Source of the DNA: Dictyophora rubrovolvata
Taxonomy: Eukaryota; Basidiomycota; Agaricomycetes; Phallales; Phallaceae
Length of the DNA stretch: 64,000 bases
Direction of reading: 5' to 3'
Assembly: GCA_029959195.1 (NCBI GenBank)
Contig: CP114122.1
Location: 2,480,001-2,544,000, forward strand
A model generated the notes under the pieces. That model did no database searches and was not told the origin of the DNA. It saw nothing but the letters and a program-made list of their open reading frames with translations. The position numbers and the translations under genes are program-made. Shown here piece by piece: positions 7,916 through 62,479 of this stretch. Numbering within the stretch: the stretch's first letter is position 1; each line of letters starts with the position of its first letter.

Positions 7916-8236
7916 ATGTCTCCAAACCAAGTTACAGAAAGTAGTCGCGCGCAAAGTAGACCAGGGACTGTTGATTCATTTCTCCAGTCCCTCACGTCTA
8001 CGCAACCCCCACCCATGTCAAGGCTTTCTTGCATTGCCCTTCCAGATGTTGAGACGGATATAGGCCAACCTCCTGTTCTGTTAGGAGGTACGTTGACTGT
8101 AAAAGAGATTCGGGCATTTGATGTATCTGGATTGACAGGTGCGGGTACTTCCCAACCACACAGCTTACCCACCCCGCCTTCCTCCCCCGTACAAGAGGAG
8201 AAGACTCTACCCTTTTATGGGACGTCGCAGCAGTGA
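7916..8236 (+). CDS. IPLP-family small disordered protein, 'LPCIPLPDV' type
   Basis: Two exons, 7916-8087 and 8139-8236, about 89 aa after removal of a 51-bp phase-1 intron (GTACGT donor, TTGACAG acceptor). Exon 1 is Ser/Thr/Gln-rich and ends with PPPMSRLSCIALPDVETD, the variant core of the family. Exon 2 starts right after the intron with GAGTSQPHSLPTPPSSPV and an acidic tail. The intron is a multiple of three and has no in-frame stop, so an unspliced message would still encode about 106 aa. The same core, order and intron phase occur in the genes at 10385 and 17264. There is no signal peptide or transmembrane segment. TPPSSP offers proline-directed phosphorylation sites, which is inference only. 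Function is unknown. Confidence 0.68.
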   Translation: MSPNQVTESSRAQSRPGTVDSFLQSLTSTQPPPMSRLSCIALPDVETDIGQPPVLLGGTLTVKEIRAFDVSGLTGAGTSQPHSLPTPPSSPVQEEKTLPFYGTSQQ

Positions 8237-10384
8237 TCACGTCGTACGTCTGTGTAGTTGGACTCGAGCACAGCGATACTGTTCCACTACATATCATAAC
8301 GTTATGTAGATTGGTAAGTTCCACTCATTACAACACGATGGATTCAAGATTGTCTGGTCGGAATCGATTGACTGGGTTTCGTACAGTTATTTTCCATATT
8401 CTTGTGGTTCGGCGAAACCTACAATTGATATTAATATTGCCAAGACGTTCCCCCCCTTGACCGTGCTTGTTTTGGGGTGTTGATGACTCCCGATTTGCGT
8501 TTGCGAAAACAACCTGTATTTAAATATCATACAACGGAATATTGATGCGCTCCCTTGTTCATATTACATTTATTGACCACAGCACTTGAAAAAATCCCTT
8601 ACGCGTTCTTCCCCTTTGACATGATAAAGTGACAGTGACACTGATGGCTGTTGCACGTCATCAATATTGAAACTGATCAACAGTCAGCAGTCCACGAAAC
8701 CAGTTATCAATCAAATAAAATCATCTTGATTGGCTCAGGTGAGTAGAGAATTTGATCTTTCTTCATATAATCCTGAATCACACTATCAAAACAAGGTGCT
8801 CTCACAGGATCAAAGCTACATGAGCGTATTCGGAGAATTTCCTATTGAATATGCATATCACAATGTCAACACTGCCTTACAGTTGATGATAAATCTCCCA
8901 AATTAATGTCAGGAGACATCCTCAATGAAACAGTGAACCGATGATCATAGACTATTATAAAGTACCGGGACGTCATCTGTGTACAGCCAGCCTTGTGATT
9001 CATAGGAACTAGAGAATCTATCATGACAAGTATCTTTCACATTGCACTGCCACGCTTCACCTCACTCACCAGAGCGAGGAGACCGCATTTGCACAAGTTG
9101 AAGCAAAAGCACTGGCCCCTGGGGTGGTCACTGCCCCATTTGTCTTGGTTCGTACTGAAGAATTATTGTTAGTTTGTCCGTGATAAGTATGCGATTAGAA
9201 TCTCGAAACTATATCGCGTGTTTGAGACACCAATGTTGCAGCGACAAACCTGATAGCTTAAAGGAAGGCAGACAAGAATAGTTGGTTGAGCTTGCCAAGC
9301 TGTCGGGATTCGGCTACACAATGCAAACTCCGGAGAGCTCCGCTCGCATTATCCCTCGACTTTCCCAACTTTTCTTGATGACATCCTTGACACGCTGCAC
9401 GGCTTTATCATCCTCATAGCTCCTATTTTTTTCCTAATTTTTTCTCAAAAGTTTTCATAATCATCATCATTAAAAGAACAAGATGTAAGACATTTCTGGT
9501 ATGTAGAATCCGGAGCAAGACGCCGCCTGACTACCATCGATATGGTATGGTCCTACAGCACAGGGCATTGACCTTGAGCCATACGAAAAGATGGAGAACA
9601 TAGTTCGATAGTATCTGTGTCAACTTTGATGAAGACGTTACGCAAACTTTACTAAAGTGAATCGTTGGCATGCATTTTTGAAGGTACGTAAGAATCCCTC
9701 GTCAAAACAACGCCATTACGCGGCTCATTCAAACGAACTGAGAAGTTATGTTCCTGAAAATCAGGTTCTCGGTCATTTTAATCTCACATCATCCATCTGG
9801 TGTACTACGTATCAAGCCAATCAGATGATTCCTCGAACACTTGCAAATTGATGTCAAACGAACTTAGGACAATTACCTTATCCTGTGTAAAAGTAGCCAG
9901 ACGGTAATATCAAAAGCTACCATGAACCTTTCACCCAGCTTTGATAGCTTTGTATTCCCATTCTTTCAATCGTGCTGACAAAGAACCCTCATAATCGACC
10001 TTGGACTAGCACTTCCAAGACATCATAAGCGTTGACAATCTTTTGACACATCGCTTTTCTATTTTCAGTTCCCTTTAGTCCTGAGATTAATTTGATGACA
10101 TAGCTGTAAAGTCATGTCGCGCCACCGACCTGAGCACTCCCCTTTGAGTAACGGCTCATTTTTAACTATGATATACCTAGGCGGTGACTCGTGCGTAAAA
10201 CGTTATTTTGGAAGTTCTTTATAGAAACTTATGACATACACGGCTTTCCCTAGTGAATGTATTTGCTGTGAACTGGCTTCCTTAACCTGTATCGCCTGGG
10301 TCTACATATATCTATCTTTCCAACTCTGATCACTCCTCCCTCTGTAGCCCTAACTCGCCCAGAAAGAATACCTCGGAACCTTTT
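8237..10384. other. Intergenic region
   Basis: No ORF here has family resemblance or splice-consistent neighbours, and the short plus-strand ORF at 9657-9851 is unsupported. A CATATATC element near 10305-10312 may serve as TATA for the gene at 10385. Confidence 0.5.
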
Positions 10385-10651
10385 ATGTCAGAAGACAAGA
10401 ACATAGAGTCCCTCCATATGTCCATGTCAAATTCCTCCTCTCTTGCATGCCCCGAACAACCTCCTCCCGCGCCAAAACTACCTTGTATTCCTCTTCCAGA
10501 TGTTGATACGGATGCCTCTCCACCACGAACCGAGCAAAATATCACATTTTCTGGGAATGCTCTGGGTTTAACGATGTATCCGACGCCGCCGTCCTCTGCT
10601 GTCGAACAGAACTCAACTCTCCGACTAGAGTACCTCGGCTCTGAGAGGTAG
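10385..10651 (+). CDS. IPLP-family small disordered protein, apparently intronless
   Basis: A single 88-aa ORF. After an acidic, Ser/Met-rich start comes PPPAPKLPCIPLPDVDTD, the best match to the core of the 7916 and 17264 genes. YPTPPSSAVEQ follows 25-30 residues later and matches the exon-2 opening of its paralogues. The interval between the two motifs, where relatives carry a phase-1 intron, reads straight through here as ASPPRTEQNITFSGNALGL with no good donor/acceptor pair. The intron is therefore either lost or never gained. The gene lies between paralogues in the same orientation. There is no signal peptide or membrane segment. Role unknown. Confidence 0.65.
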   Translation: MSEDKNIESLHMSMSNSSSLACPEQPPPAPKLPCIPLPDVDTDASPPRTEQNITFSGNALGLTMYPTPPSSAVEQNSTLRLEYLGSER

Positions 10652-15482: not shown

Positions 15483-15490
15483 TATATAAA
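15483..15490 (+). promoter_or_regulatory. TATA box of the 15559 gene
   Basis: TATATAAA, 76 bp upstream of the ATG and followed by a C/T-rich leader. Spacing is nearly the same as in the 23048 paralogue. Confidence 0.7.
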
Positions 15491-15558: not shown

Positions 15559-15890
15559 ATGTCTTCCTCTCGAACCACTTCATACTATTCCTCTTCTCCA
15601 GTCCCGCAACCACCTAATGCACCGTGCATGAAGACTGTCCCACTTCCCTTCGCTGACACCAACGACAACTTGTTTCTTTCTTACGCTGCTGGATCCGGCT
15701 ATACCAACCCCCGTTGGTTATTTTTCTCGATATCATTTTCGTGCGTTGCTGATGCTGTATCGTAGAACGGCTGCCTACGCCACCTTTGTCATTGCCTTCC
15801 CAAAGTACATCAAGAAATTGGGGCAACGATCGGGGGGCGTCATCGGGGTCGACATCAACCTCTTACTATTACACCTCATCGAGAAGATGA
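15559..15890 (+). CDS. IPLP-family small disordered protein, 'SYYTSSR' type
   Basis: Two exons, 15559-15712 and 15766-15890, about 92 aa, with a 53-bp phase-1 intron (GTTGGT donor, CGTAG acceptor). It opens with MSSSRTTSYYSSSPV, and the core is QPPNAPCMKTVPLPFADTND. Exon 2 begins QRLPTPPLSLPS and ends TSTSYYYTSSRR. Each block matches the genes at 23048 and 31305 in order, spacing and intron phase, so I am confident of the gene structure despite its small size. Cys replaces Arg in the core (APCM versus APRM). There is no signal peptide or membrane segment. The Ser/Tyr-rich ends and PTPP block suggest a disordered, possibly phosphorylated protein (inference). Confidence 0.78.
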
Positions 15891-17263: not shown

Positions 17264-17631
17264 ATGTCTCAAACACGGGTACCAGGAAGACATACTCCAT
17301 CGGTGGTGAACTCATTATCCTTTCACCCTCCCACAACATTGTCACAACCGCCACCAACCCCAACGTTGCCTTGTATCCCCCTTCCAGACGTTGGTGACAC
17401 ACGGTTCCCTTGGCAGACCATTGCACCTGGAGGTGAGTGAAATATTATATGGCCTCAACAGCGGGTGAATAAAAAAAAATAATTATTGATTCACAAGCTC
17501 ATCGTCCGCCGACGCCCCCGCCATCTCCTATACGCGGTACCCGCCAGCATGTAGCAGGTACACGTACGGGAAGCCCCCCTCCAAAAAAAAGCTTGAAGCA
17601 AAGTAAGCGCTCACCGCCATTGACACTTTGA
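17264..17631 (+). CDS. IPLP-family small disordered protein, 'LPCIPLPDV' type
   Basis: Two exons, 17264-17432 and 17498-17631, about 100 aa, with a 65-bp phase-1 intron (GTGAGT donor, CACAAG acceptor). Exon 1 carries SQPPPTPTLPCIPLPDVGDT, matching the core of the 7916 and 10385 genes. Exon 2 opens HRPPTPPPSPIRG and turns basic: PPPKKSLKQSKRSPP near the C terminus could act as a nuclear localisation signal (inference). Because both exons are short, the gene only becomes visible by splicing. TATA box and C-rich leader are clear. There are no membrane segments. Function unknown. Confidence 0.75.
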
Positions 17632-23047: not shown

Positions 23048-23389
23048 ATGTCTTCTTCCTCGTCGTACTCATACTCTTACTACTCCTCGTCGTCTTCAAT
23101 GGCACCTCCAAAGACACCCGGTGCCCCAAGAATGGGGACAATTCCCCTCCCACCCGCCGATGAAGATAAATACTATCATTCTCGTTCGTCATCACTATTT
23201 GTATCATCGTCCCCATCGTATTCTAATATCTTTTTAGAACGTTTGCCCACACCACCACCATCCCCTTCATTTGGCTTCTCCAGTTCGTCACGGAAGCCCA
23301 GCGATGCACGTGTCGCAGGATCCTCAGCCTTAGGCCTCACCCTGAACGTATCCTCGTCAACTTACTACACGTCGAGTAGGAAGTCGTAA
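23048..23389 (+). CDS. IPLP-family small disordered protein, 'SYYTSSR' type
   Basis: Two exons, 23048-23183 and 23238-23389, about 95 aa. The 54-bp phase-1 intron has a GTTCGT donor, TTCTAAT branch site and TTTTTAG acceptor. The protein opens with a Ser/Tyr run, then PPKTPGAPRMGTIPLPPADEDK. Exon 2 begins QRLPTPPPSPSFG and ends SSSTYYTSSRKS. The intron has no stop and is a multiple of three, so retention would insert 18 residues without breaking the frame. The closest relative is the 31305 gene, which shares the core, the donor sequence, leader repeats and 3' sequence. Function is unknown; composition predicts a disordered cytoplasmic or nuclear protein (inference). Confidence 0.82.
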   Translation: MSSSSSYSYSYYSSSSSMAPPKTPGAPRMGTIPLPPADEDKYYHSRSSSLFVSSSPSYSNIFLERLPTPPPSPSFGFSSSSRKPSDARVAGSSALGLTLNVSSSTYYTSSRKS

Positions 23390-24450
23390 TGACCTCGACA
23401 ATGAAGTCTAGGATAAATTTCCGATCGGACTCATCGTCCCGTTTGGTTTTCAATGGCTGCCATGGTACTAAACAATAAACAATATCTGTTTCGGAATTCG
23501 CGGACTCTGTCTCGTCGCCATTTATCGCCGTCGTCATACACGCAAAAATCCTCAGAAATCATAAAATACCCAATTGCGCCCTCGCCACGTTGGTCTCTCC
23601 AACGATGTTTCTTACAATATACCCTGGGCCATGTCGTTTTTTTCTTTCTGTTTTTTTTTTGCCTCCGTCGAGTTCGCCAACTGTTCCAAATCTACACCGC
23701 CACTCGGATAGATGGATAGGTGTAATACATTTCCCGGTTTTGACTGCTTCTGTGGTGGGGCCACAAACACGCATCCCAATCGTCGTCGTCGTCTTTGTTC
23801 CCCCCCCTCCACTATGCACCAATTTTTGTCCCCTTGGACTTTTCGTTTTCTCTTTTATCCCTTCTTTTTCTTTTCGTCTCAATGTGTTCCTTATCTGTCT
23901 CATCTACGCCACACGTCTAACGTGTGCTAAATCTTTTACGACCCGAACGAACTTTTTTTTTTCCCTTTACACGCCCCCATCTCCAACGTTCCGTGCCGGC
24001 ACACGCTGGTTATTTTCGCCGTCGTCGTTTCGCCTTGCCTCGCTCACTCCGAGCTGTCATATCTTGACCAACACCTCAGCGTGTATGGTACTTCAATGAC
24101 GCCGCCGTCATTGATTCCTATTTCTCTTTCTCTTATGTGCCGTGTAGTGTATCTTATTCATGAACGTATAACCTCCACCGCTCTTCATTGCCATTATTGT
24201 TATCGTCGTTGTTATTATCGTTGCCGTTGTTATTATCGTTGCCGTTGTTATTGTCGTTGCCATTGTTATTGTCGTTGTCGTTGTCGCTGTCGTTGTCGCT
24301 GTCGTTGTCGCTGTCGTTGTCGCTGTCGTTGTCACTGTTGTCGTCGTCGTTGTCACTGTTGTCGTCGTCGTCAACGTAGTTGTCGTTAACGGTGTCGTCG
24401 TTGTCGACATTGTTCTGTATTACCGAATCTTGCTAAATAAAGCCTTATCC
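23390..24450 (+). other. Long pyrimidine-rich 3' region of the 23048 gene
   Basis: This stretch is strongly T/C-rich on the plus strand and ends near an AATAAA at 24436-24441. Two blocks, 23421-23450 and 23618-23665, match 31741-31767 and 31931-31975 downstream of the 31305 paralogue at nearly the same spacing (197 versus 190 bp). I read it as a long 3' UTR that was duplicated with the gene. The ORFs inside it are low-complexity products of the base bias and are not called. Confidence 0.5.
24194..24385. repeat. Imperfect GTT/GTC triplet repeat tract
   Basis: About 190 bp of GTTATTATCGTTGCC-like and CGTTGTCGCTGT-like units, i.e. nested triplet and 12-15-bp periodicities. It lies within the probable 3' region of the 23048 gene. 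Confidence 0.85.
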
Positions 24451-27400
24451 CTCTTTTCAAAGTTAAACAACTCATCGTGTCATTTTTTTTTCGAAATGAA
24501 ATGAAATATGATAGGTATATCATATCATCTTACCATTTGAATGAATGAGATGGTGATCTATTAATTTAGCCCCGCTCTGCATTGCTGTGGTTGCTGTGAC
24601 CCTTCGAGAGGCGCTGCGCAATATGCAATTCTAATAATTACGCGTTTTGGTGGAATCGTCCCTTTGTGCGGTGTCTCCTTTCCGGAAACACCCCCCGCGC
24701 CGGTGGCACCTGTGCTATTGTGCCGCGGCTCAACGCGTACGACACTTTTGTTGCCGCCACACCACGTATGAACGGCGACAATCTTCAATAACCTCAACGA
24801 TAATCGATGAAACCTTTGAAATTTCTTTTTTTTTGTAAAAAAAAACTCATCACTGCGGGGGAACGCTTTGAGTATTATTATCCTCTATAACTTATTTACA
24901 CCACTTTTTACTACGCATTAATACTTTCAATCTCTCTGAATCAGTAAAGTTTATATGAAAGAATTGCGTAGTAAACTGCGTGTGTGCGCCAATAACTGAT
25001 GTTAATAAACAACAGTAAATGAAAACGAGTCTTAATTAGGTTCAGAGACCATATGACCTCAATGCGACATCAATGTTCTCCGCAGTTATTTGTTGGTGCG
25101 TTGGACGTACAATAGGGCGGAGGGTTTGAGGTTATGGAACCCAAGTTAAGAAGATTGAGTTATGATTGGGCGCGCCCTAGCGAAACCCGGGACATAAAAT
25201 CGCTGTTAGATGACGTGGCCTCTGTTCTTTCAATTAGATACTTTAAAAGGTTACCAGTTCTAGATCTGGAACGAATATTTTCGGGATAACTGGACAATCT
25301 GAGATCAAATCGAAAGGAGGAGAATGGAAGGAACGTGTGGGTATAAGAGTTAAGATTGATCATTCAGTTTGATGCTACGTTTTACGATTACGATCACGAA
25401 GTATTTTGTGTATTTGTGTTTGGAAGGTTGCCAGGAATTTCGAACTGGCTGGGGTCTCCACCGGCACCTGGGGCCGCGGTATGTACATATGTACATAAGT
25501 TAGGAAGTCAAAGCCGTTCCACTCCGGAAGTTTTGTTTAGCTACAAGCTCATGTGAGTACACGAAGATTCAGATATGGTACGATTTGATATAGCACGATC
25601 GACCTCAACTTTTTGATCACTTGCGGCAATGTGAAATTATTATCCGCGAGCGACGTTGCCGATGGGAACGACATTACATTGAATCTGATGCGTGATATAT
25701 TGAGATAAGTTGTACGAAATTGTACGATGAGTATATAACAACTCAATATGATACGATGCACAATACATACGCCGATTCGGATCTGACATGTTGGGAAACT
25801 GAGTTGTATTCGCCAACTGTATTCACGGTCTAGCATTTGATACGCATGTTTGCCAGGCGGATTTGAAGAATATGAACGACTTTACGTTTACCCCTCATTT
25901 GGGCGTTTCTCGAGCGGACAATAAACTCTCACACGGGACCACGCCGCACACACGTGTACTTGAAGCCCAACTGACAAGTCCAAATTCTTCTGAGAGATAA
26001 GATGCTTAAAACCTCGCCTTTTGATGGTGAGTTTAATAGCCTTGGCAAGTATTACGCACCGTATACGCATGCAGGATGCCGGTTGCGCGTGCTAGCCACT
26101 ACATGGCTCCTATATCAAACCAACTTCTTGGTTGTATTGTTTGAAACCAAAAACCAGAAAGATAAACACATCTTAGTAAGTGTCGATTTGGCCAAGCCTC
26201 GAGCTGCTAGACATTGCCCATGAAAAAGGTTACTCCGACTCCTATGTTTAAATAAAAATCAGAATCATCGCGGAAGCTGTTATCGGTGCGCTTTCAACTC
26301 GGCAAGAAGCACTTGTGTAAACGACTTCGGACTTGTTGCATTTCGGCCCAAGACATTACTTGTTCTCGTTTGAGATTTTGGTTAGATCTTTGGGAAAAAG
26401 GCTTGGTGACATTGCTTTGTTCAGTGGCGGCTGATAAAGCTTGGCGAATTGTGTCATCAGTAAGATAGCTGACGGATGCGCGAGACGGGAATAACAAAGC
26501 ATGATGGAACTATTCATGCCGTGAAATGGATCTGTCTATAACGGCTCCAACACCAATTCAATTTACAAGCAGAAAATTATTACACAGTGGATTCACCTGC
26601 AACAAGAGATGTGAGCAAGGTTACTGAAGACTCCCTTTCTCTCAAAGGTTAATAGTTTATGTATTCAGCTCCGGAATAGTGGCGGAAGCCAAGAATTACT
26701 ATGTATTGCGACGTCATCTTTTGATGGTCTTGGGTAGTTGACAAGTTCTTCCGCTTCGCCTAACGGAAACTGGTTGCCATTGTTCATCGATCCGCCGCCT
26801 GTGCGGCGATGCCGAACTGAGCTGAACTGAGTCAAGGATATTAGCTTGTCCAGTGTGCGAATTGTAGTCGGAGTAGTCGGATCTGTCCACGTCATAACTA
26901 CAACTCAAGTTCACTGAGTCAGCCTACATGAACAATTACTTGTTTAATGAGAGCTTACTTCGATGATTCGACTTCGAAGAAGAGCTCAGTTCGGCCCGTA
27001 AACCATAACCGACATAACCGGCTCCCGGCAACTTCAACCCCACCAGATCTTGTGCGAAAGCAATGGGATGAACTTGAAAGTAGGAAGTTCTAGATTTATC
27101 GCACCATTTGAATTGGTTAATTTTGCGCGTAATCGATGACCGCGTGGCCGTCCACTGGCTCTCGAGTCTCGTGGCAATGAATTATAATCATACAGTGGGA
27201 TATCCGATTAAGTATACATATTCAGACCCGTACTTGAGGTGAATACTCTAATTGATTTGATGAACATTGAAGGTTATTTAGAACTTACCATTATTGATTG
27301 CCTTGCCACTTATTCTAATTCCCTGTTCTGGTGAAATCACGTCGCACTTCCGATTCGGAATCTCGTTGTATCCCGAGCAATTTCCGCTTCGGAAACACTG

Positions 27401-31304: not shown

Positions 31305-31685
31305 ATGTCTTCGTCCTCATCGTCATTCTCCTATTACTCCTCGTCGTCTCCTACACCCCCAAAGACGCCAGGAGCTCCAAGGATGAGGACAATTCCCCTT
31401 CCAGCCGTCGAGGACGAGAAATACTATTATCCTTATGCCGGTGGCTCAAGCTCTTTTTATGCTTCCCGTTCGTCATTATCCTTATCGTGGGCTTCCCGTA
31501 CGGTCCTCTAATACCTTTCTCTAGACCGCCTGCCATCTCCACCACCATCACCCACCTTGGGTTCTGCAAGCCCTTCGAGAAAGCAGAGTGACACACGCAA
31601 TTCTGGGCCCTCAAGCTCAAAAGCAGGCTCAGCATCCACCTCGACGACATCGACGTCGAGTTATTACACCTCGTTTAAGAAGTAA
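31305..31685 (+). CDS. IPLP-family small disordered protein, 'SYYTSSR' type
   Basis: Two exons, 31305-31467 and 31525-31685, about 107 aa. The phase-1 intron is 57 bp with a GTTCGT donor and CTCTAG acceptor; it contains an in-frame stop, unlike the intron of the 23048 gene. The protein has a Ser/Tyr-rich start, then PPKTPGAPRMRTIPLPAVED, then a Tyr-rich patch. Exon 2 opens HRLPSPPPSPTLG and ends TSSYYTSFKK after a Ser/Thr run. It is the closest paralogue of the 23048 gene: the same donor, leader repeats and 3' blocks point to a recent duplication of the whole transcription unit. It is isolated in an otherwise gene-poor region. There is no signal peptide or membrane segment; role unknown. Confidence 0.82.
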
Positions 31686-41597: not shown

Positions 41598-42589
41598 CTG
41601 GATACAAGTAACTCAGCCTACTGGTTGATCAAATGGAATATAATATATACTTCGCATAGGCAAATTAACCAGACGCAATAGGCCCGAGGAAGTCTAAATT
41701 GATTCCCATGTCTCACTGCGCAACGTCAACCACTGATCGTTCTATGAGTAACCCATGTCGATAATGTTCATTGACGAACGTTCTTCTTGAGTTCTCTTTG
41801 ATTGTCAATCACGAAGGGCATGCGCTGTCCGTGCTCAGAGAGCATCATTCCATGAGAGAAATGATGATATGATCAGCTCGTTTTGATGAGATTGTCATTT
41901 AGGGACTCGGTGGGATGAATGGTACAAATGGAGAGTGTATATGTTCGAATTGGACAAAGGAGTCGTTCTTTTGCGCCGGCCCGAAAGCGTTATAATTAGT
42001 TTCTCATTAATCTAAGGAGAAATAGTGGCACTATATCCTTCTTATGAAAAAGAGAAACAAAGCAGAAAGAAAATTCTCAATTCTGAGAACTTCTGAGAAA
42101 GGTGCAATTTGATGGAAAACACGGAAAGAAGTTCGTGGTATGATGCTAAGAGCCTCCGATTGTAAGGCTCGGCATCTCGCGAGACGTTATACTCAGCCTG
42201 GAACTCCGCCATCGCCGAAGCCGATGACATAAACCATGCTGAAAACAACCTATGGTGTATAGAGAACAACGTTTCACATGTCGCAACTAGCGGTTATGGT
42301 GTAGATAGAACTTGTTATTTAGTGCTCGAAATATAGAGCTTTATATACAAAATTATAAATATGAAAAAGGTGAAAACTAACTACCGGGATTTATAATATT
42401 TTACTAAGACTTAACTAATGCGTCGTCGGCGACGATGGAAGGTAAGGCAGGACTCCCATCGTTGATATCCGCTTCTAACTATTCAGACAGCAGCTCGTCA
42501 TATATCGTCTTCAATAAGGAACCTCCTCCGAGTGTTTAGACGTTTGTCATGCAATAAGTGAAGTAACATTATCACTCTAAAGGCGATAT
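41598..42589. other. Intergenic, 5' flank of the siderophore synthetase
   Basis: This is the upstream region of the minus-strand synthetase. No clear GATA cluster or TATA box stands out, and I see no supportable ORF. Confidence 0.4.
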
Positions 42590-43035
42590 ATGAACTCGAA
42601 AGCACACCATAGTTGCACGAACAATCAACCCTAACTGTAGAACTGATCTCAGAATGAAATTTCTGAAGTGCAGGAACGATCTATCAGGATTAATTCAGTA
42701 TGTTTGCACCATCACAGCCATCATTCATCAACAAACTTATGCATTGTCTATACTCCCAGATCTTCATGCGTCATGCTTCCCGCATTTGACATTACCCATC
42801 GGCAATCGTTCAATGGTTATCGAATCACACACTTGTAAATACTGAACGCGAAATACCTCACGCCACAAAACCTCCTGATCGGCCCCGGGGTCTAGATTTT
42901 TTTCGCTTGGTTCAAGATTTCCCAAGCACGGTTTCGGGAAATCTTTGCCCCCCGCCAATTGTTGGACTTCGCAAGTTGGGGTCAATCACAAGAGAAAGAA
43001 GTCTTCATTTATTGCGTTTATCAAGCAAGGTAATA
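42590..43035. repeat. Diverged direct repeat, left copy
   Basis: Collinear with 45625-46028. Matching stretches include GCACGAACAATCAACCCTAA, CCATCACAGCCATCATT, CAGATCTTCATGCGTCA, ATCGGCAATCGTTCAATG, CTTGGTTCAAG and TATCAAGCAAGGTAAT, in the same order in both copies. Divergence and indels are considerable, so the duplication is old. Confidence 0.7.
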
Positions 43036-43965
43036 TGTCACATCGTAGGCGAGACGAAACAAGTCTGATTCCAATATGAACAGTAAAGGAGATCGTTTGA
43101 GAAAAGCAGGATCCAGCATATCGCAGGAATGAAGTTTGACGACGGCTCAATTTGTGCTGTCAAGATCGACTTTGTAGGAATTTTCGACAACGAAATTCCT
43201 CCGATTATCTGTGCACTTCAAATCGTTTTTATCGGGCGATTCCGGTTCTCGGTTTCTCATCTATATACACTACTTTGATGCTTATCAGCTCAGGGCCGGC
43301 CCCCAGTCAAGGACGGAAGCTATGTTCGCTTGTTTGGAGGACAAAGCAGCGATGAGTGGGGCATGTGCGTTTGATTTTATTTTTTAGCGGCAGGAGTCCT
43401 GTAAGATGTCAATTTTCTGTTCTTTCATTGTTTGCTATAGGTGTTTCTATTTGGCTTTCGTGGATTGGGAGCCACCACCTCGTATAGGTAACAGAGACCA
43501 TTTTCAACCTATCTCTGATGTTTTTTATATTTAAATATGTAACGTCTAACATTTATAGGTGTTTAATTGGGATGGGCGTATGGTTAGGAGAAATGGGTAA
43601 CGGGGATAATGTAGCTGCGAAAGAGATAACTCTGATAGCTCAGGAGTAGAAGACATTCATTTGACTATTGGCTAGAACATCACTGATGGGGTGGACGCAC
43701 CATGGGACTTTGGGTGGTCGTCCATAATACCGGTCGAGTGGTCTAGACCCCCGCATCACAATGACCTTCAAGAACGACGAGGACCGATGAAGCCATTCAT
43801 TGTTGTTGGACCGCGGGACGCGTCGACAGTCCTTTGCTCAGTAGTTAATGTTGAGAACTTCTATTGTGGACAGTTCAGGTTACAATCGTTTCGTTGGGAC
43901 GATTCCTCTACCTGCTACCTTATAAACTTTTAACTTTCAACCCCTACCACATCTTCCTCCTCCTC

Positions 43966-44440: not shown

Positions 44441-45624
44441 TCGGTCGATTTTAGAACAATGTCGGATCGTCTGGGTTTCGCGGTGTGGTTTTGATCTAGA
44501 TTTGGATGACGAATCAGAAGAGAAAAAAGATTCCCTGGTTGATCAAAAAAAGGAGGCGATTCACCTAGTGAGCACAGTAGGTGAACTAAAAAACGGTGAA
44601 TCCCCCTGGGATGGCGGCTATAAATTTAATACCCAAGAGCTAACGACGAAATACGACGATGGTAAACTCATGTGAGTCACTATGCGGAAGTAGTCAATTT
44701 ATGGGCCTTCCCGCAAACTACACCTTCCCGCTATATCAATGGCCCTGCCCCTAGACTCGACGCGCGACAAAGCTGGGCTGGATGAACTTGACCTCAATGG
44801 TGAAGGTATTTCATAACCCGACAACATTCTTTAGGCCGCACCTCGTGGCATTAAGGTCCAGTATCGTTCAAGAATTACCATCATTGCCCAACTCGCTCAG
44901 CTCCGCAAAAATTGTGGCCCGACTGAAAATAGAAGACTGCTGTTAGGGCAGCAAAGCGGGCCGGAAATGAACTTGCGAACGAAGACGCCAAGCTTTCTGC
45001 TTCGTATTATGTAGATAGACAGCGCTACAAATAAACAAAGGTCTTGCGAATGAAAATGACCGAAGTCTCAACACGAAGCTCGAGGCTGACCGACTGGGGG
45101 ATACTATGACTATTTATTAAGCTAAAAGGAAGGGGATTAAATACAAATGAAGACTTGAAGGCAATAAACGAAGCAAGGACATAAAGGAAGGAGAAAGATG
45201 AAAGAAAATATGGACATGAAAGGAACGGTGACAAAGGAAGGGCAAACAAAGGATGGATGCTAAATATACTTCGACGGGCGCTAGCAACCCGCCTAGGGAA
45301 CTAAGCTCCGACAAATCGGCGAGCCCTTATAAGCAGTCACGCTAGTAACGCCTGTTTTGACAGTTGAGTTCACGAAAAGCACTCTGTTGAGTCTGTGCAT
45401 CAATTGCCGTACACACATCCTTTCAATACCGAATATGGGGGATTTGACCCTCTTGAAGTGCCAGACTAATGTGTGATTTGGAGGTGAGAGTTCTGACTGT
45501 TAATACAGTGCACTTTTACACTAAATACCCCGTTGTCGTAGCTCATCCGTATATATCTTCTCCGTGAAGGAATCCCCGAGGGCTTTAATTTCCCAGTTAC
45601 AATCAACTAACGCCACCATTTCGA

Positions 45625-46028
45625 CATGGGAACTCTAAAGCACGTCATTATCGCACGAACAATCAACTCTAAGTGTAAAATCGATCTAAGCATGAGAATC
45701 TTTAAGCACAAAAATGATGTGCCATACTTAGTCCAAGGTATGCTTTCACCACCACGGCCATCATTATTGTTTGATTAACTGCATTATCCCAGATTCTCAC
45801 GCGTCAGTTCAAGTTCTGACATGTCAAGATCTTACATATCAGCAATTCTTCAATCATGAATCAATGATGTTCGATTTTCCACCTTATAATTTAATTTAGC
45901 GTCTCACTTGAGTTAAGAATCCCTTCAAAGTCCGAAGCTCCTTGGTTTAACCAACTGTCGGACTTTCACATCTCGAGTCACCCACAAGACTCATCGCTGC
46001 CATTATGTATGTATATCCAGCAAGGGTT
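45625..46028. repeat. Diverged direct repeat, right copy
   Basis: Same-orientation partner of 42590-43035, beginning near ATGGGAACTCTAAAGCAC and ending at ATCCAGCAAGGGTTAT. The two copies bracket about 2.6 kb containing the unresolved 43966-44440 gene. Confidence 0.7.
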
Positions 46029-46787: not shown

Positions 46788-47669
46788 TCAACACGGGAGG
46801 GGAACGTATAACCTGCAGGGCGCGAATGTCCCAGACGACGACGATGAGGTCGAGGTCAATGAGAACGACGAGCGTGGGCTTACAGTGTTACTGGCGTGCT
46901 TGGTGCGCTTGCGGGGAGGCGAAGGTGGGGGAGTGAGATCATCTACAGGGTGCCAGCTGAATCCGTAGCTATACCCTTTAGAAGCCTTCGAAGAAGTGAC
47001 TGAAGGCGCTGGAGCCGGAGATGATTGTTTAGATGATTTGGATGCAGCTTTGGGTTTGGGTGCTACTGTAGGGATGATGACACTGAGTCCCCCTTTTTCC
47101 TTTCGCGGGCGCTGAACGGTAGATTTGTGAGAGTGCGAGCTGGGCGGTGTGTAATATGTGTCGATGTTAATGTGTCTACGACGGGATGATGATGACGATG
47201 ATGATGACGAGGAAGGAGTCAAGAGTGAGACTATCGCTGTAGTAGACGAAGCCGGTGACGGTGGTGTTGGGAGCGGGGGAGGGAGACGCGAAGTAGAGGA
47301 CGGCGGGGTGTACGTATGATATGATCTAACTTGTACAGGCGTTCCTCTGTATGTGCGGTTCTGTCTCTCGGGAACAGGCTCGTAGTCATACTCGAGCCCG
47401 AGCCCTTCCTCTTTGCGGTAGTATGTGTCATAAGGAGGGGGTGGAACATCGTCATCCTCTTCGACGGGGAGAGGAACGAATCTCATTCGAGGAGCATGAA
47501 GAATTGCGGGAGAATAATCATAGTTATAATAGCTTGGTGAGGTATACATGGGCGGTGGGAGGTCATGGATGTCTTCAAAGTCGTCCGTAAGGCTTATGAT
47601 TGCCGTGGTGGAGAAGGTGGGTGAAAGACTGAGAGTTGATGGAGAAGGGGATGGTGTGGAGTAAGGCAT
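46788..47669 (-). CDS. Large IPLP-family disordered protein
   Basis: A single 293-aa minus-strand ORF. The core ILHAPRMRFVPLPVEEDDD lies near residue 70 and matches the APRM-IPLP core of the 15559, 23048 and 31305 genes. VPPPPYDTYY follows at once, including a PPxY-type WW-domain ligand. RLPPPLPTPPSPAS (about residue 150) corresponds to the exon-2 opening of the small genes, and NIDTYYTPPSS (about 190) to their TYYTSS C terminus. A further 100 residues, Ser/Lys-rich and basic with PPPSPPRKRTKH, end in a second PLP motif, RLYVPLPC. It looks like an enlarged member that kept the block order and has no intron at the usual place. The start at 47669 is the first ATG after a TATA box 47 bp upstream. 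Disordered, perhaps nuclear (inference). Confidence 0.8.
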   Translation of the reverse strand: MPYSTPSPSPSTLSLSPTFSTTAIISLTDDFEDIHDLPPPMYTSPSYYNYDYSPAILHAPRMRFVPLPVEEDDDVPPPPYDTYYRKEEGLGLEYDYEPVPERQNRTYRGTPVQVRSYHTYTPPSSTSRLPPPLPTPPSPASSTTAIVSLLTPSSSSSSSSSSRRRHINIDTYYTPPSSHSHKSTVQRPRKEKGGLSVIIPTVAPKPKAASKSSKQSSPAPAPSVTSSKASKGYSYGFSWHPVDDLTPPPSPPRKRTKHASNTVSPRSSFSLTSTSSSSSGTFAPCRLYVPLPC

Positions 47670-47723: not shown

Positions 47724-50639
47724 CACGAGATGGTATGTGAACAAGGCGTTGCGAAGAAGGGGTAGATCAAATATCTTTTCTAGGCGGGAGGAACGCGAAT
47801 CAGGTTGCTGTGCATCAAGTAGATGTACAGGTATCTTTTACCTTTCAGTTGCTAGTTGCTATTTGGTGGCTGTTGCTGCGAGAATTGTCGGTTGCTATGT
47901 CGTTGAAGAGTATAGAACCAATCGGGGTGCGAACTTGGGGAAAAAAAGTGATGTTTGGCTGCTAGGTGTTGTGGAGGAGTTGCTTGTTGATACGAGGTAG
48001 ATACGCAGTGAAGTGAAGGAGCGAAAGAATTGGACGAGGTGTATATATACGTATCATCATTGTAGTAGCATGACATGGATTGATCGAGCTTGAGCTGACA
48101 TGAGATTAAACGAGTGTGACAAATGACTGCTGTCACACGGCATGGCGGCAATGTCCGATTGGACAATGATACAAGATACGCCCCTGAACCCAGCTCTAGT
48201 GCTAAAACCACCGTTTAAAATCGGCGAAGGAATCAACACGCAACACGCTGTTTAAACGTGTTTTCTTTCTCTTTTTTTCTCTTTCAATCTCTACAGTTTC
48301 CTGATCCTTTGATGCATGTATTTTAGATTCTAGATCCAAGATTTATCGAATCGCACGCTCCGTTATCAATAATTATTTTGATTTTCTTTCCGGCTTTAGT
48401 CTCGTCCCTTCCAGAGTAGCGATTGTCTTCGACTTCGAACTCGCACTTGGCTCGAGTTTCCCGTGCCGGTCCAATGAATGATATCATCCACTTGGTATGC
48501 TAGTACATACATATGTATTATCAACACGGCACGTTTCCATTTGCACATTACTCACTCGCACTCGTCAACAACTCCTCCCTTCAAGCTTTTTTGTGTGCCT
48601 TTTTTTTCAAGTGCTGCGCAGACGTCAACTGCGGATCCCCGACGGGAACTTGAACTTCCCTAGCCTATGGTGATTGACTTACTACACCTGTTCCTTCTTC
48701 TTCTTCTTTTATTCATCTCCGGATGGTACTGGAGCTGGGCTCGAGAGCGATGTATACATACGTACGGCGGACAGCTCGACGCTCGACGTTACAGCTGGAC
48801 GTGGACGTTAGACGCAACGCAAAACAGCCAGTGTCAATATTTATCTTTAACCCGGGCCCCCAAGTTTTCCAAGTTCTCAACATTATTATTATAATATGGA
48901 TAATGGCCCTTGACATATGTATTTTATTTTTAACAAGATAAACTCATTCTCTCTAGTATATTACCTGCAACCCTTGAATTCTGGCGCCGTACGCGTATCA
49001 CAACAATATGGCATTGAACTCGCATTCTCTGCAGCTACCAATTGGGTGCATCACAACACGAGGCCAGATGCGAGGCCAGATGCGAGGCCTCCTCAACATT
49101 GGCAGGCCAGCCTCGGATAATCGCGAATCAATTAAGCCATTAATTATCACCATCGCCATCTCTCTCTGAATCATTATCAACGATGAACCCCTTCTCTCCT
49201 TCGAGAATAAAAAAAATAATTCTCCATCACATCAATCCCGACTATATCATTCATAATAATAATACATATTAGTCCGGCGAAGGGAAGGGTTCTTAAAGGC
49301 GGTTTAGTTCACGTCGGTCATCGTTCTGCCTTCTCCCGCCGGCTTCCCCTCAAACTCGGGCTCGTCTAATATCCGTTCCTTCCCCCAAAATTGTCAGAAT
49401 CTCCGTCCGTCCGCCCGCTTAATAAACGCATTTGGCACCCGTCATTCTGATTAGTCCCCCGATCCCCTTTACGTACATCGACCCGCCCGCCCGTCAAATC
49501 AACCAATTACGACCCCAAATTGTCGTGCCATACACATAATGATGGTGTATGTACAATTTGCAGTCCAGCTGTATGTCAGCACGCTAGTTCCGACAATCAC
49601 AGCATCAATCACATACATACGTATGTATGTATCGTCCATTTGCAAAAAGGCAAAGCGAACTTTCAAACAAATTCGTTCCATTCCACTGTTTGAGTTTGAT
49701 CGTCGACTCGCCGGAGGCCCAGCCAGCTTGAACATCCTGCGGAAAGTTTTAGCGAGTATTTCACTACCTTTCAGCATTAATGGCAATTTCCCTTGTCTTT
49801 CTTCTTCTTCTTCTTGATTAGCGAAGTCGAGCTTCAAAATGCCTCAGTTCCGCTACCGGATGTGATCGGGGACAGGTCGAACCATGATGCTGGTGGCCAT
49901 GAGTACTGACAGTCAGTAAAGAGAGTAAGTTGCTTGCACGAGGCGCGGCTAGCGGCCATAGCAGAAGAAGGGTGAAGAAGGGTGAAGTAAAGCGAACGAA
50001 ATGAAATACAAATTAGTTAGAAGGAACACTGGAATGTGCATGGTTTTTGCGAGTAATTGTGATGTCGAGACGTATCAACGAGTGCGGCGGCAACGCGTTG
50101 AGGTAAATGAAGCCGACGGACGCTTATATTTGTCGGCGTCGGGCCGTCATGCAATCATTAATTAGCGCCGAAGTTTGAAGCTGCGGCGCGCATGAAACAA
50201 GAGGAGGTTTCTATACCAGACTCCAAGCTATTCACCCAAGAGGAGATGCCAAAGCTAAAGAAACCAAGAGTCCATTCTACTATTCCAAAATTCCTAATCA
50301 CTATCACTCATTGATCTATGCAAGCAATATCACAATCAAAGTCATCATTATCGTTATCACATTGACACGTACCACAAATCACCGTTCTTGGCTCAAGCTC
50401 AAAGATCTCCTATGTACATAGTCTCGTTATCACATCAGTTCCGATATTTCTATCTGATCGGGTGATTAGGAGTACGGGAAATTATGATTTCCTACAGGTT
50501 TGCTTCTCCGGATTAGTAACGCGTTCAAGCTTCTAGCTCAAGAAAAACAGTCCATCCTACTCAAAATTCCCGAAGCTTGAGATCCGAGTCTAGCTTCAAT
50601 CGCAATATCTAAGTACCAAAGACTGATGGCTTCGACACT
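47724..50639. other. Intergenic region
   Basis: No supportable gene. Plus-strand TTC repeats (about 48694-48715) and a repeated GAGGCCAGATGC unit (49061-49088) are the only local structures I noticed. Confidence 0.4.
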
Positions 50640-56000: not shown

Positions 56001-56167
56001 TTTATTGAGAGGCCCGTTTCCTGCAACAGTCTCCAATCGCCAGTTTATCTTCTTGGGGAATCAGTGTCTCCCACAAAGCAACCTCTTGAATCTTTCAAAA
56101 CCCAATTCAATTCGTATCCCTCTTCTTCACAACTATCCGTCTCCAGAGGGCAAATCCGCAACTCGTA
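53076..56167. other. Intergenic region
   Basis: Short ORFs such as minus 53302-53550 and plus 54379-54824 have plausible composition. They match no family and cannot be joined into a gene model. No TATA box with good spacing was seen for the gene at 56168. Confidence 0.4.
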
Positions 56168-56770
56168 ATGGAATCATCCCGATCTCAAACTCAAGCTTAC
56201 TATCCGCCCCATGCCCCAGTTATAAGGCCCATTGAGCTCCCTTCAGACTTGCATTACGAAAGCCCGAGTCCAATGTCAGCCGGCGTTGGTGCATTGGGTA
56301 CCCCACACAGCCATACATATGGATCTAGGTCGTTAATGACGCCACCTTCCCCGTCGTCCCCGTCAACATCTTCACGCTCCAGCAGCAGAAAAGCCCCTAG
56401 TCCTTCTCATGAACAACTTCAGATCAAAAGGCTATCGCGAAAAGGTACGCGCGCGCGCTCAATAAAAGAACATCTTAAACCTGATACTAACATATTTCGC
56501 GTAGAGATGCCTTCTACTCCTTCGTCACATTCATCAGCCGCATCTCATCCTGAATCATATCATCAATCACCGTATAATCATCAAAACGACTATTACTCGC
56601 CTACTGAAAAAGACTACTATTCACCCGATTTCCAATCAAGGCGATACAGTCCTCAAGGGACGAGCCCCTCATACCCCTCATACCCGCCCTACGCCCCATG
56701 CACCCCGTATAAGCCTTTACCGGCACATTACCCTCTTACTCCTCCATATGAATCCAGGCCTCTTCCTTAA
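56168..56770 (+). CDS. IPLP-related Pro/Ser/Tyr-rich protein, 'YKPLP' type
   Basis: Two exons, 56168-56444 and 56505-56770, about 180 aa. The 60-bp phase-1 intron has a GTACGC donor, an excellent TACTAAC branch site and a CGCGTAG acceptor. Exon 1 has YYPPHAPVIRPIELPSDLHY, a divergent form of the family core (I-E-L-P for I-P-L-P), then Ser/Pro-rich sequence with TPPSPSSPST. Exon 2 opens EMPSTPSSHSS, in the place of the LPTPPPSP block, and is rich in Tyr/Pro/Ser repeats (YYSPTEKDYYSP, YPSYPPYAP), ending near TPYKPLPAHYPLTPP. The intron lacks stops and is a multiple of three, so retention adds 20 basic residues. The closest relative is the gene at 61844-62479, which also ends with YKPLP. Role unknown. 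Confidence 0.72.
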   Translation: MESSRSQTQAYYPPHAPVIRPIELPSDLHYESPSPMSAGVGALGTPHSHTYGSRSLMTPPSPSSPSTSSRSSSRKAPSPSHEQLQIKRLSRKGTRARSIKEHLKPDTNIFRVEMPSTPSSHSSAASHPESYHQSPYNHQNDYYSPTEKDYYSPDFQSRRYSPQGTSPSYPSYPPYAPCTPYKPLPAHYPLTPPYESRPLP

Positions 56771-57279: not shown

Positions 57280-59184
57280 TCAAAGGTCTCGTTCTTGCGG
57301 CCTTTCATTACTAGCCCATTCCTCGAATTGATACGCACCAGCGAGTTCTCCAATATAATCAGGAAAAGATCGACTATTGCGAAAATTCCAATCATAAATT
57401 ATGTTATTATTACTGTCATTTGGGTTCGAATTCAATGGCTCAGCCTCGGCTAGACTGTTTTCATTTTCGTGGATAGTAAAGTCGGCCATAATCTGAGCAT
57501 TTGCGGAGTGGAAAAGACTTGAGATTGAAAGATTATTATTATTGCGCGGCGGCACCGTTGCCGGTAGTGCTACGGACCAAATTAGGCCGGCGCTGATCGC
57601 CTCGCTGTGAATTGATGGACGAGTATTATGTCTGCGTAGCGCTAGCAGAAAGTCGGAGACGATGATAGAGGAAAATCTGCAAAACGAACTGTAAGCGTTT
57701 TTCTTTTAACCCAAGCTTGTCTTGAAAAAATTACAGGGTGACGAAAGTTCCGCTTATATTGGAGTTGATTGACTAGAGCACGAATGAAAGCATGAGTTAA
57801 AATTCTCAGTTGAATAGGAAACATTACAAACGTCCGTGAACTAAGTGACGAATTTTAAGAAGCCGGTTCGGAATCGAAGAAAGAGGAAAATACGCACAAT
57901 GGAGACCAGTTCCTGCGTGGCTATAGCTATAACAAACCTGAAAGCCATCAACGTTTGAGAAATGAGATTGAGAAGACGCATTTCGTACAAGTATCTAAGC
58001 AGTCCTAGAAACATTTTATATAAACGATCACAACTATCAAGATTTTGAGGCTGAAATTCGCAAGTACCTTGTTTTATGAGCATGCTTCCGAAATCATTTT
58101 TGATAGAAGGTTTAGATTTCAACCTTCCCCAAAGCTCGTACATCGTGATCGCAAGTACGGCAGTATCGTTAGCTATTCCGCATGCGAGTTCGGCGGTGAT
58201 AACTAAATCGACAGACCCTCAGATTCAAGAAGGAAGTATGGGAAGGAAACGTCATTTACGCCTAAACAGTAAGTAAATACAAGTGGTTAATTGTCAAAAA
58301 CAGGGATTTGTATCAAATCAAAACCTACATATTCTCTTCACCGCTGGAATCCAGGTCCAAACAGCCAGGAAACATGCTTATGCCTACCGATAAAAAGGAG
58401 TATCAGCGTGAAGTTGGCGTGAAGCGTATTGGATTCGATAAATCTCATAAACATACCAACAATGTAACAGGTTATATCGCCTAGAAATGTACTGCCCAAA
58501 AGGGCTATTGCCAGCCATTTCTTTTCTGATAATGCATAAGCGCGAAGGCACAATAGACCTACGTAAGAGACTGGGGATTTACATCAATTGAATCACAATC
58601 ACTGCCATACACACCTCGTACACCAATCGTGAAAAATATTTGGAGTATGTTTGCTGTGTTTGTTATAGCGTCGCACACACTGTTGAATCTTGGTTAATAT
58701 TTTACGATTGCTATCTTAACTCAGACGAAGAGTACCCTTGGTCCTATACGTATACTTTTTTTCAATTCAAAATTTGACTATTATGATAATGAAACGTACC
58801 TCTCCCGTTTTAGGCCATAAACTAGACAAGATTCCTAACATGTAAAAAATCGGCTGGATATATCGTGTGAACACGTATAAAATCACTGGAAAGTTGATTG
58901 GCCTTTTCCAGATTAACTGGACTTCTTCATCGAACGAGATAATTATGTGATAAACTGCCACCGCTTAAATTGGAAAATACGAATTTGTTCAATTCAGCTG
59001 TAAACGTTGCTGAGATAACGTACCTAGACATGCAAACTCCGAGTAGAGTAAGGTGTATCTGAGTCCATAAAATTCAGTAAATAACAGTTAGTATTCTGGA
59101 TGCGAGAAGAACATACGCTTCATTCAACTCCTGAATTAATTGCTGCACTTCAACAGGCAGGTCCGGCGTTGTTGAGTTGTCCAT
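57280..59184 (-). CDS. DUF6533-family multi-pass membrane protein
   Basis: Ten exons on the minus strand: 59184-59117, 59058-59024, 58963-58800, 58679-58615, 58558-58457, 58383-58342, 58202-58068, 58004-57898, 57772-57735 and 57676-57280; about 385 aa. The N terminus contains YTLLYSEFACLAVAVYHIII then SFDEEVQLIWKRPINF, the characteristic DUF6533 block (Tyr-x-D/E-x-x-W after the first membrane helix). LLCLRAYALSEKKWLAIALL, VITAELACGIANDTAVL and SSIIVSDFLLALRR match later conserved segments. Several hydrophobic helices suggest about seven membrane passes, and a 110-residue Asn/Glu-rich tail is probably cytosolic. The family is abundant in Agaricomycetes and has no established function. The junction between the third and fourth exons does not keep frame with the best consensus sites, so a shifted donor near 58795 is likely. 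All other junctions agree in phase. Confidence 0.83.
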
Positions 59185-61843: not shown

Positions 61844-62479
61844 TCAATGAGGCAATGGTTTGTATCGGGTGACGGGGGCGTGGAGATGCGCACTGGATGG
61901 TGGGGGTGTAGGAGGTGTGTAGGACGGAGGCAGCTCATAGTGATATGGATAGAAAGGACGAGAAAGCGATTCAGTTGTGTCGTCCATGTCGCTGTGCCAG
62001 GATAAGGGAGACTCGGATCGCAATGAAGGGCGGGAAGTCGACAGAGGCGAAGGGGGCGGTGTAGACTCTTCAAAGAAGGAAATCGTGTAAGCGATGCGAT
62101 AGAGAACAATAGAGGACAGTGGGCCAACTCACGATATCCACACCCTTTCTGATAAACTGGTGAAGGCCAGGATGTGTGTGTCTCTTCTGTTTCTGTACGA
62201 TGCCATCAATCAAACTGATTTAAACTTCGAAAGTAAATTGTCAGCCATACCTTCATCTGATAGAGGGGGTAATGGAATGGGTCTGAGTCTTGGCCCATGA
62301 AGAATATTCGAGGGATATTCCTCTCTTAGTGAGAGAGGTGACGAGAGTGGCGCACGCAAAGTAGAGCCGGAAAGTGAAGAGAGAGTCACAAATGAACCTG
62401 GTGGAGACGAGGTGTGGATTCTATTGGCACGGCTAGTAGGGAGCTTGAGAGCGTCGACGAAGATGGACATGCTGGACAT
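61844..62479 (-). CDS. IPLP-family Pro/Ser-rich protein, three exons
   Basis: Three exons on the minus strand: 62479-62251, 62192-62133 and 62067-61844, about 170 aa. Both introns are phase 1 (donors GTATGG and GTGAGT, acceptors GTACAG and TTGAAG). Exon 1 ends with YPSNILHGPRLRPIPLPPLS and DE, the family core. Exon 2 is a 20-residue insert (ETEETHTSWPSPVYQKGCGY) absent from the small paralogues. Exon 3 opens QSTPPPSPLSTS, the conserved block. It continues with Pro/Tyr-rich sequence, PPSYTPPTPPPSS, and ends TRYKPLPH, like the gene at 56168. The start at 62479 is the first ATG downstream of a TTTATAAA box at 62564-62557. No membrane segments; role unknown. Confidence 0.8.

What the first reader, a model, noticed from the sequence alone, without database searches (positions are those of the whole stretch)
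7916..62479. Dispersed family of small IPLP / TPPPSP proteins makes up most of the genes in the window
Nine genes (starts 7916, 10385, 15559, 17264, 23048, 31305, 47669 minus, 56168, 62479 minus) share an ordered pair of blocks. The first is a core like APRMRTIPLP or LPCIPLPD followed by acidic residues. The second is a [QH]R[LP]P[TS]PP[PS]SP block. They outnumber all other recognisable genes here. I know no named family with this architecture. The blocks stay conserved inside otherwise low-complexity sequence, which suggests they are functional short linear motifs.
Basis: partly seen in the sequence, partly recalled or inferred. Interest (0 to 1): 0.9.

Follow-up and report, generated by a model that had tools for sequence, protein, structure and literature searches.

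The report
Nine small disordered motif-carrying fungal genes
A stretch of mushroom-like fungal DNA holds nine apparently related genes for small, probably unfolded proteins that share two short conserved motifs, one of which resembles a 'destroy me when phosphorylated' tag, although that role has not been tested.

Summary
The observation largely holds. Nine dispersed genes encode small Pro/Ser-rich proteins with two ordered blocks. Six (subfamilies A and B) are linked by pairwise BLASTP; 47669(-) by block 1; 62479(-) by modest block scores plus introns; 56168 only weakly. Spliced models place a phase-1 intron shortly before block 2 in seven of nine. Seven of nine have an upstream TATA box (12% of random positions do). 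dN is below dS in the blocks. None of nine matches Pfam.

Two additions. Subfamily C repeats block 1 (AP-x4-[KV]PLP) near its C-terminus, suggesting a reusable binding motif. Block 2 resembles the FBXW7/Cdc4 phosphodegron: block 2 itself meets the published optimal expression in two genes and one relaxation in a third; three fail only through Arg at P-3; three fit less well. Counting sites anywhere in the protein, three are optimal and six within one relaxation.

Best mechanism, unproven (about 0.3): short-lived disordered regulators that dock an unknown partner through block 1 and are destroyed by SCF-Cdc4 after proline-directed phosphorylation. Two published MAPK docking expressions were absent. 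No fungal proteome, genome or RNA-seq could be searched, so expression, spread and novelty are unknown.

The parts
7916..8236 (+). Subfamily B gene, 89 aa spliced; block 1 LSCIALPDVETD, block 2 SLPTPPSSP; predicted intron 8088-8138 (phase 1; frame also open unspliced)
   Evidence: BLASTP to 10385 E=4e-8; optimal FBXW7 expression SLPTPPSS; TATA at -138; block 1 not above non-members when left out
10385..10651 (+). Subfamily B gene, 88 aa, no intron modelled; block 1 LPCIPLPDVDTD, block 2 MYPTPPSS
   Evidence: optimal FBXW7 expression MYPTPPSS; AF2 mean pLDDT 59.6, pTM 0.14; no TATA found
15559..15890 (+). Subfamily A gene, 92 aa spliced; block 1 APCMKTVPLP, block 2 QRLPTPPLS, C-terminal SYYYTSSRR; intron 15713-15765 phase 1, needed to reach block 2
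   Evidence: TATA at -76
17264..17631 (+). Subfamily B gene, 100 aa spliced; block 1 LPCIPLPDVGD, block 2 HRPPTPPPSP; intron 17433-17497 phase 1, needed to reach block 2
   Evidence: TATA at -154
23048..23389 (+). Subfamily A gene, 95 aa spliced; block 1 APRMGTIPLPPADED, block 2 QRLPTPPPSP, C-terminal TYYTSSRKS; predicted intron 23184-23237 phase 1 (frame also open unspliced)
   Evidence: BLASTP to 31305 E=2e-13; TATA at -75
31305..31685 (+). Subfamily A gene, 107 aa spliced; block 1 APRMRTIPLPAVEDE, block 2 HRLPSPPPSP, C-terminal SYYTSFKK; intron 31468-31524 phase 1, needed to reach block 2
   Evidence: TATA at -90
46788..47669 (-). Subfamily C gene, 293 aa, no intron modelled; block 1 APRMRFVPLPVEEDDD, P-rich blocks PLPTPPSP and DDLTPPPSP, second block-1 copy at C-terminus APCRLYVPLPC
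   Evidence: AF2 mean pLDDT 47.0, pTM 0.13; TATA at -54
56168..56770 (+). Subfamily C gene, weakest member, 180 aa spliced; block 1 APVIRPIELP, weak MPSTPSS after phase-1 intron 56445-56504 (intron placed by hand; frame also open unspliced), second copy APCTPYKPLP, LTPPYE near C-terminus
   Evidence: blocks 1 and 2 not above non-members, block 2 not above shuffles; no TATA found
61844..62479 (-). Subfamily C gene, 170 aa spliced, two phase-1 introns placed by hand (62193-62250, 62068-62132); block 1 GPRLRPIPLPPLSDEE, QSTPPPSP, PPTPPPSS, second copy at C-terminus APVTRYKPLPH
   Evidence: TATA at -84

Best explanation
An old multigene family of small intracellular disordered regulatory proteins. 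Shown: common ancestry of at least the A and B members (both blocks, intron position and phase), codon-level conservation of the blocks, and a second copy of block 1 in three proteins. Inferred: block 1 (APx[LM]xx[IV]PLP followed by acidic residues) is a docking peptide for a folded partner that I cannot name. Block 2 ([L/P]P[T/S]PPxSP) is phosphorylated by a proline-directed kinase (MAPK or CDK, possibly with GSK3) at T0 and S+4, and is then recognised by the WD40 domain of the fungal Cdc4/FBXW7 F-box protein, so the protein is short-lived and removed on signal. Most members would be made from TATA promoters when needed.
For: Block 2 has the published FBXW7 core (TPPxS with both sites phosphorylated; simple consensus [TS]PPx[TS]P; optimal [^R][PLIVMFY][PLIVM]TPP[^RG][ST]; PMC8955265, passages and sections 6 and 12 read). 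Counting sites anywhere in the protein, 3 of 9 match the optimal expression (shuffle mean 0.087), 6 of 9 match it or one relaxation (shuffle mean 0.74), 9 of 9 if Arg at P-3 is also allowed (0.72); 0 of 3000 shuffles reach any of these; the rest of the window (1256 fragments of 30 aa or more) gives one match. The paper's passages describe co-occurrence of a kinase-docking motif and the degron, the layout proposed here. A phase-1 intron shortly before block 2 in seven of nine, which in four must be removed to reach it. dN/dS in the blocks 0.14/0.47 and 0.15/1.75 for 23048/31305, 0.24/0.69 and 0.22/1.55 for 7916/10385, against dN 1.16 in the 7916/10385 N-terminus. TATA in seven of nine against 12% of 20000 random positions. 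Low-confidence AF2 models of the two intronless members.
Against: Block 2 itself meets the optimal expression only in 7916 and 10385, and with one relaxation in 47669; 15559, 17264 and 23048 have Arg at P-3, which the human FBXW7 expression excludes; 31305 has Arg at P-3 and Ser at P0; the post-intron blocks of 62479 and 56168 match no class tested. The matches of 62479, 56168 and 31305 lie elsewhere in the protein, and the 31305 one has Lys at P+3. The Arg is kept in four genes, so selection may serve another reader. My P-1 and P-2 relaxations allowed any residue, looser than the paper. Left-out block 2 never beat the best non-member fragment (0 of 9) and 56168 is no better than shuffles. The nine are relatives, so matches are not independent. 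Block 1 does not meet the two published MAPK docking expressions tried. No phosphorylation, turnover, expression or Cdc4 gene was observed.
Confidence: 0.3

Rival explanations
1. Block 2 is a proline-directed phospho-switch read by something other than Cdc4, for example a Cks1-type adaptor, a Pin1/Ess1 isomerase or a WW domain, and controls binding or location rather than destruction.
For: The Cks1-like pattern [FILPVYW].TP (recalled) is present in 9 of 9, total 18 against a shuffle mean of 6.7, 0 of 1000 shuffles reaching it. The Arg at P-3 in four genes does not suit FBXW7.
Against: Total S/TP sites are not above shuffles (61 against 57.9); what is kept is a precise [TS]PPx[SL]-like core, more than a simple TP site needs.
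Confidence: 0.3
2. The two blocks are constitutive proline-rich ligands for SH3, WW, EVH1-like or similar domains, and the proteins are small scaffolds or competitors.
For: PLP and PPP runs; block 1 recurs at both ends in subfamily C, as in bivalent scaffolds; PPxY in 47669 and 62479.
Against: By eye no canonical SH3 spacing is kept across the family (motif rules recalled, not computed); PPxY is not above shuffles (3 against 1.8); block 1 has fixed hydrophobic positions and acidic residues after it in 9 of 9, unlike a plain polyproline ligand.
Confidence: 0.17
3. Decaying or neutral duplicates: the blocks are relics of duplication, or chance in Pro/Ser-rich sequence.
For: Low-complexity composition; block 2 weak when left out (0 of 9 above the best non-member fragment) and no better than shuffles in 56168.
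Against: dN below dS in 16 of 16 stretches (several saturated); no direct repeats of 40 bases or more outside coding blocks link the copies, so the duplications are old; TATA in seven of nine and splice signals kept.
Confidence: 0.08
4. Secreted small effectors.
For: Small, multicopy, no Pfam match.
Against: No hydrophobic leader: the highest 15-residue mean hydropathy is 1.21, in 47669, and 1.01 or less in the other eight; no signal-peptide program was run.
Confidence: 0.03

Closest known systems
[quoted passage not shown]
   Same: Core TPPxS preceded by hydrophobic or Pro residues, probably in disordered sequence; three proteins hold a site that matches the published optimal expression, two of them in block 2
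   Different: Arg at P-3 in four block-2 copies; Ser at P0 in one; no demonstrated phosphorylation or turnover; no sequence relation of the carrier proteins to known substrates was found or sought beyond Pfam and PDB
MAPK substrates with a D-type docking motif plus S/TP sites
   Same: Docking-like block with hydrophobic-x-hydrophobic, a basic residue before it in 8 of 9, and S/TP sites downstream
   Different: The two published expressions tested (NFAT4 and RevD types) are absent in 9 of 9
Unannotated conserved Agaricomycete gene families (Spc14 and Spc33 are named in PMC8893723, passages seen)
   Same: Fungal genes without known domains

Membership tests
Single paralogous family (A, B, C subfamilies) | Ordered block 1 then block 2 | tested here: met
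   8 of 9: both blocks reached by at most 38 of 1000 shuffles; 56168 block 2 reached by 215 of 1000
Single paralogous family (A, B, C subfamilies) | Shared intron position and phase before block 2 | tested here: met
   Phase-1 intron 1 to 10 residues before the TP site in 7 of 9 (6 if weak 56168 is left out); 10385 and 47669 have none. The search required a [TS]PP site downstream, not a phase; three of seven rest on consensus alone, and those of 62479 and 56168 were placed by hand
Single paralogous family (A, B, C subfamilies) | Pairwise similarity between subfamilies | tested here: inconclusive
   A to B: 31305-7916 E=1e-4 over both blocks. C to A: 56168 E=0.02, 47669 E=0.04. 62479 reaches only C members (0.11, 0.15) and 17264 (0.47). 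Database of nine, low-complexity filter off
FBXW7/Cdc4 phosphodegron | TPPxS core with permitted flanks | tested here: inconclusive
   Anywhere in protein: optimal 3 of 9, optimal or one relaxation 6 of 9, three more fail only by Arg at P-3. In block 2 itself: optimal 2 of 9, one relaxation in 1
FBXW7/Cdc4 phosphodegron | Lies in disordered sequence | tested here: inconclusive
   Two of nine modelled, mean pLDDT 59.6 and 47.0, pTM 0.14 and 0.13; single-sequence models, which are often poor anyway
FBXW7/Cdc4 phosphodegron | Double phosphorylation and binding to Cdc4 WD40, causing degradation | not testable with these tools
   Needs experiment
MAPK D-type docking motif | NFAT4-type or reverse D-motif expression | tested here: not met
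   0 of 9 for both (expressions from a PMC5753338 figure legend, with lost caret signs read as not-P and lost braces as repeat counts)
MAPK D-type docking motif | Other D-motif classes (JIP1, MEF2A, DCC, HePTP, general) | not tested
   Compared only from memory; a loose D-like pattern of my own was found in 9 of 9 (22 sites against a shuffle mean of 6.2)
Pfam families | Any match at E up to 1 | tested here: not met
   0 of 9

The most novel reading that the evidence does not exclude
A dispersed, expanded set of disposable adaptor proteins in one fungal lineage: each brings a different sequence to one common partner through block 1 and carries its own phospho-triggered destruction tag in block 2. 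Where an intron is present (seven of nine) it lies between the two, so in four genes intron retention would give a block-1-only protein without the tag, that is, a stable form chosen by splicing.
Probability: 0.07. Interest if true: 0.75.

Novelty: new variant of a known kind. Interest (0 to 1): 0.5.

Why it matters
[quoted passage not shown] Small disordered proteins are easily missed by gene prediction. A multicopy family with a precise two-motif layout and a testable degron would give a handle on how such proteins work. Block 1, if real, would be a docking motif with an unknown partner.

Tried and rejected
Chance in Pro/Ser-rich sequence: rejected for block 1 in nine of nine and for block 2 in most genes by shuffles, but not for 56168 block 2; left-out block 2 never beat the best non-member fragment. 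Additional copies: the profile search of 3229 fragments found no tenth block-1 hit above 9.8 bits; of three other [IVK]PLP fragments, 49781-49906 and 43845-43922 were read with their surroundings and showed no block 2 by eye, 29757-29798 was not followed up. Recent segmental duplication: no shared flanks of 40 bases or more. Shared upstream motifs other than TATA: the top k-mer counts did not exceed the highest of 100 random sets, though they were slightly above the mean. MAPK docking: two published expressions absent; other classes compared only from memory. By eye and from memory I also considered calcineurin PxIxIT, PP2A-B56 LxxIxE, 14-3-3, nuclear export, EB1 SxIP, SH3 and pheromone CaaX readings; none seemed to fit all nine, and none was computed. 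tRNA scan and Rfam at gathering scores: nothing. Viral contigs with 31305: 81 pattern matches, none confirmed. PDB by sequence: nothing for one protein and one peptide. Papers: one search found none; the listed titles (15 of 15; 15 of 33) held nothing fungal; the listings (15 of 54; 12 of 63; 12 of 18; 12 of 28; 12 of 798; 10 of 12; 10 of 83) showed no description of this family in titles and abstract starts.

Full report
What is there. The window has GC 0.42 to 0.46 in 4-kb steps and reads as fungal DNA with short introns, 51 to 65 bases in my models. No genome is held for it. Of 189 stop-to-stop ORFs of at least 75 aa, 156 (plus one sub-ORF) were scanned against Pfam; the 33 left out are mainly those over the nine genes and a low-complexity tract near 24 kb. 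Above Pfam's cut-offs only an FhuF domain was found (E=1.6e-14), with weaker IucA/IucC matches upstream of it in two ORFs (one of them 22.4 bits, below its cut-off of 25) and, from a hand-chosen exon, DUF6533 (PF20151, E=4.5e-12). One further ORF matched a carbamoyl-phosphate synthetase domain at E=0.0036 among 128 scanned, which I take as chance. That DUF6533 is typical of Agaricomycetes is recalled, so the taxon is an inference.

Gene models. I modelled all nine genes with GT-AG introns scored for donor, branch and length; the search required a [TS]PP site downstream but imposed no phase, and the introns of 62479(-) and 56168 were placed by hand. Best-scoring phase-1 introns end 1 to 10 residues before the TP site in 7916, 15559, 17264, 23048, 31305, 62479(-) and, before a weak MPSTPSS, 56168; none was modelled in 10385 and 47669(-). 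In 15559, 17264, 31305 and 62479 the unspliced frame stops before block 2; in 7916, 23048 and 56168 it stays open, so those introns rest on consensus alone. All nine CDS end in a stop in frame.

Three subfamilies. A (15559, 23048, 31305) starts MSSS and has SYYSSS near the N-terminus, and ends YYTS[SF][RK][RK] (plus S in 23048). B (7916, 10385, 17264) has QPPPx5CI[PA]LPDV. C (47669, 56168, 62479) is longer and repeats block 1 near the C-terminus as APCRLYVPLPC, APCTPYKPLP and APVTRYKPLPH. The AP to PLP spacing is the same in both copies, and BLASTP aligns the 47669 N-terminal copy with the 62479 C-terminal copy (AILHAPRMRFVPLP with AHLHAPVTRYKPLP, E=0.11).

More than chance. A profile search of 3229 six-frame fragments returned the nine as the nine best block-1 hits (24.4 bits or more, next 9.8), but they trained the profile. 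With each gene left out, block 1 of seven of nine still beats every non-member fragment, 15559 and 62479 narrowly; 7916 and 56168 do not. Shuffles of each protein reach its block-1 score in 0 to 7 of 1000. Block-2 scores are reached in 0 to 18 of 1000 for seven genes, 38 for 47669 and 215 for 56168, and in 0 of 9 does the left-out block-2 fragment beat the best non-member fragment (the best one was a polyproline run), so block 2 alone is weak and leans on position and intron. The bare core [MLI]..[IV].LP also occurs 12 times outside the nine genes' frames; the extended form does not. Pairwise BLASTP links A and B members (E from 2e-13 to 1e-4 for the best seven pairs, database of nine, low-complexity filter off); 56168 and 47669 reach A at E=0.02 and 0.04, and 62479 reaches only C members and 17264, at 0.11 to 0.47. 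TATAWA lies 54 to 154 bases before the ATG in seven of nine, against 12.1% of 20000 random positions; by my own binomial arithmetic that is about 1e-5. No such site was found for 10385 and 56168.

Selection. Nei-Gojobori counts between paralogues (16 stretches, dN below dS in all, dS saturated in four) give dN/dS of 0.14/0.47 (block 1, 25 codons) and 0.15/1.75 (block 2, 11 codons) for 23048/31305, with linker dN 0.35; and 0.24/0.69 and 0.22/1.55 for 7916/10385, with N-terminal dN 1.16. Weaker cases: 47669/62479 block 1 0.44/0.99 and C-terminal copy 0.71/1.23; 7916/17264 block 1 0.45/1.08. The linker is constrained too, but less. Codon numbers are small and the stretches were aligned by eye without gaps.

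How it may work. Block 2 was compared with the FBXW7 degron of PMC8955265 (passages, and sections 6 and 12, read). Sites meeting the optimal expression are in 7916 (SLPTPPSS), 10385 (MYPTPPSS) and 62479 (TPPTPPPS, its second P-rich block). 56168 (YPLTPPYE, SLMTPPSP), 47669 (PLPTPPSP, DDLTPPPS, TYYTPPSS) and 31305 (SSPTPPKT, near the N-terminus) hold sites with one relaxation; for P-1 and P-2 I allowed any residue, looser than the paper. 15559, 17264 and 23048 fail only because of Arg at P-3; 31305 block 2 has Arg at P-3 and Ser at P0. So block 2 itself is optimal in two and one step off in one of nine; the post-intron sites of 62479 and 56168 match none of the classes. Shuffle means are 0.09, 0.74 and 0.72 genes for optimal, one relaxation and all classes; none of 3000 reached the observed 3, 6 and 9. 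Because the genes are relatives these are not independent events. The likeness to the c-Myc string is recalled; the 12 of 63 papers listed held only its other search term. Block 1 has fixed hydrophobic positions and two to five acidic residues in the ten after LP in nine of nine, and looks like a docking peptide; the two published MAPK docking expressions I could obtain (PMC5753338, passages) are absent from all nine. The partner is therefore unknown. AF2 models of the two intronless members have mean pLDDT 59.6 and 47.0, in line with disorder, though made without alignments.

Limits. No fungal proteome, genome or transcriptome could be searched; viral contigs gave nothing confirmed. Absence from Pfam and from the listed paper searches does not prove the family undescribed.

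Noticed in passing
window 39428-41612, minus strand: Exons of a probable NIS-type siderophore synthetase: FhuF domain E=1.6e-14, IucA/IucC matches at about 1e-4 (below cut-off in the one inspected).
   Followed up: partly
window 58797-58964, minus strand: DUF6533 exon (E=4.5e-12) of a likely membrane-protein gene that may spread over about 57.8-59.4 kb.
   Followed up: partly
window 1048-1398 and 3728-4579, minus strand: Two neighbouring Ser/Pro/Arg- or Gln-rich ORFs share a short PKK..[LI][LI].RL..N[LI][DE]W segment (9 of 21 identical, BLASTP E=3e-4), perhaps a second disordered family; the ORF at 1422-2180 may belong to the first gene.
   Followed up: partly
window 42584-42697 and 45622-45735, plus strand: A 114-base direct repeat, 70% identical, 3 kb apart, in unassigned sequence.
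   Followed up: no
window 24111-24501: Long triplet-repeat-like tract, open in several frames on both strands.
   Followed up: no
window 49781-49906, plus strand: Short ORF with ASVPLPDVIGD, similar to the subfamily B core, but without a second block nearby; possibly a relic or chance.
   Followed up: partly
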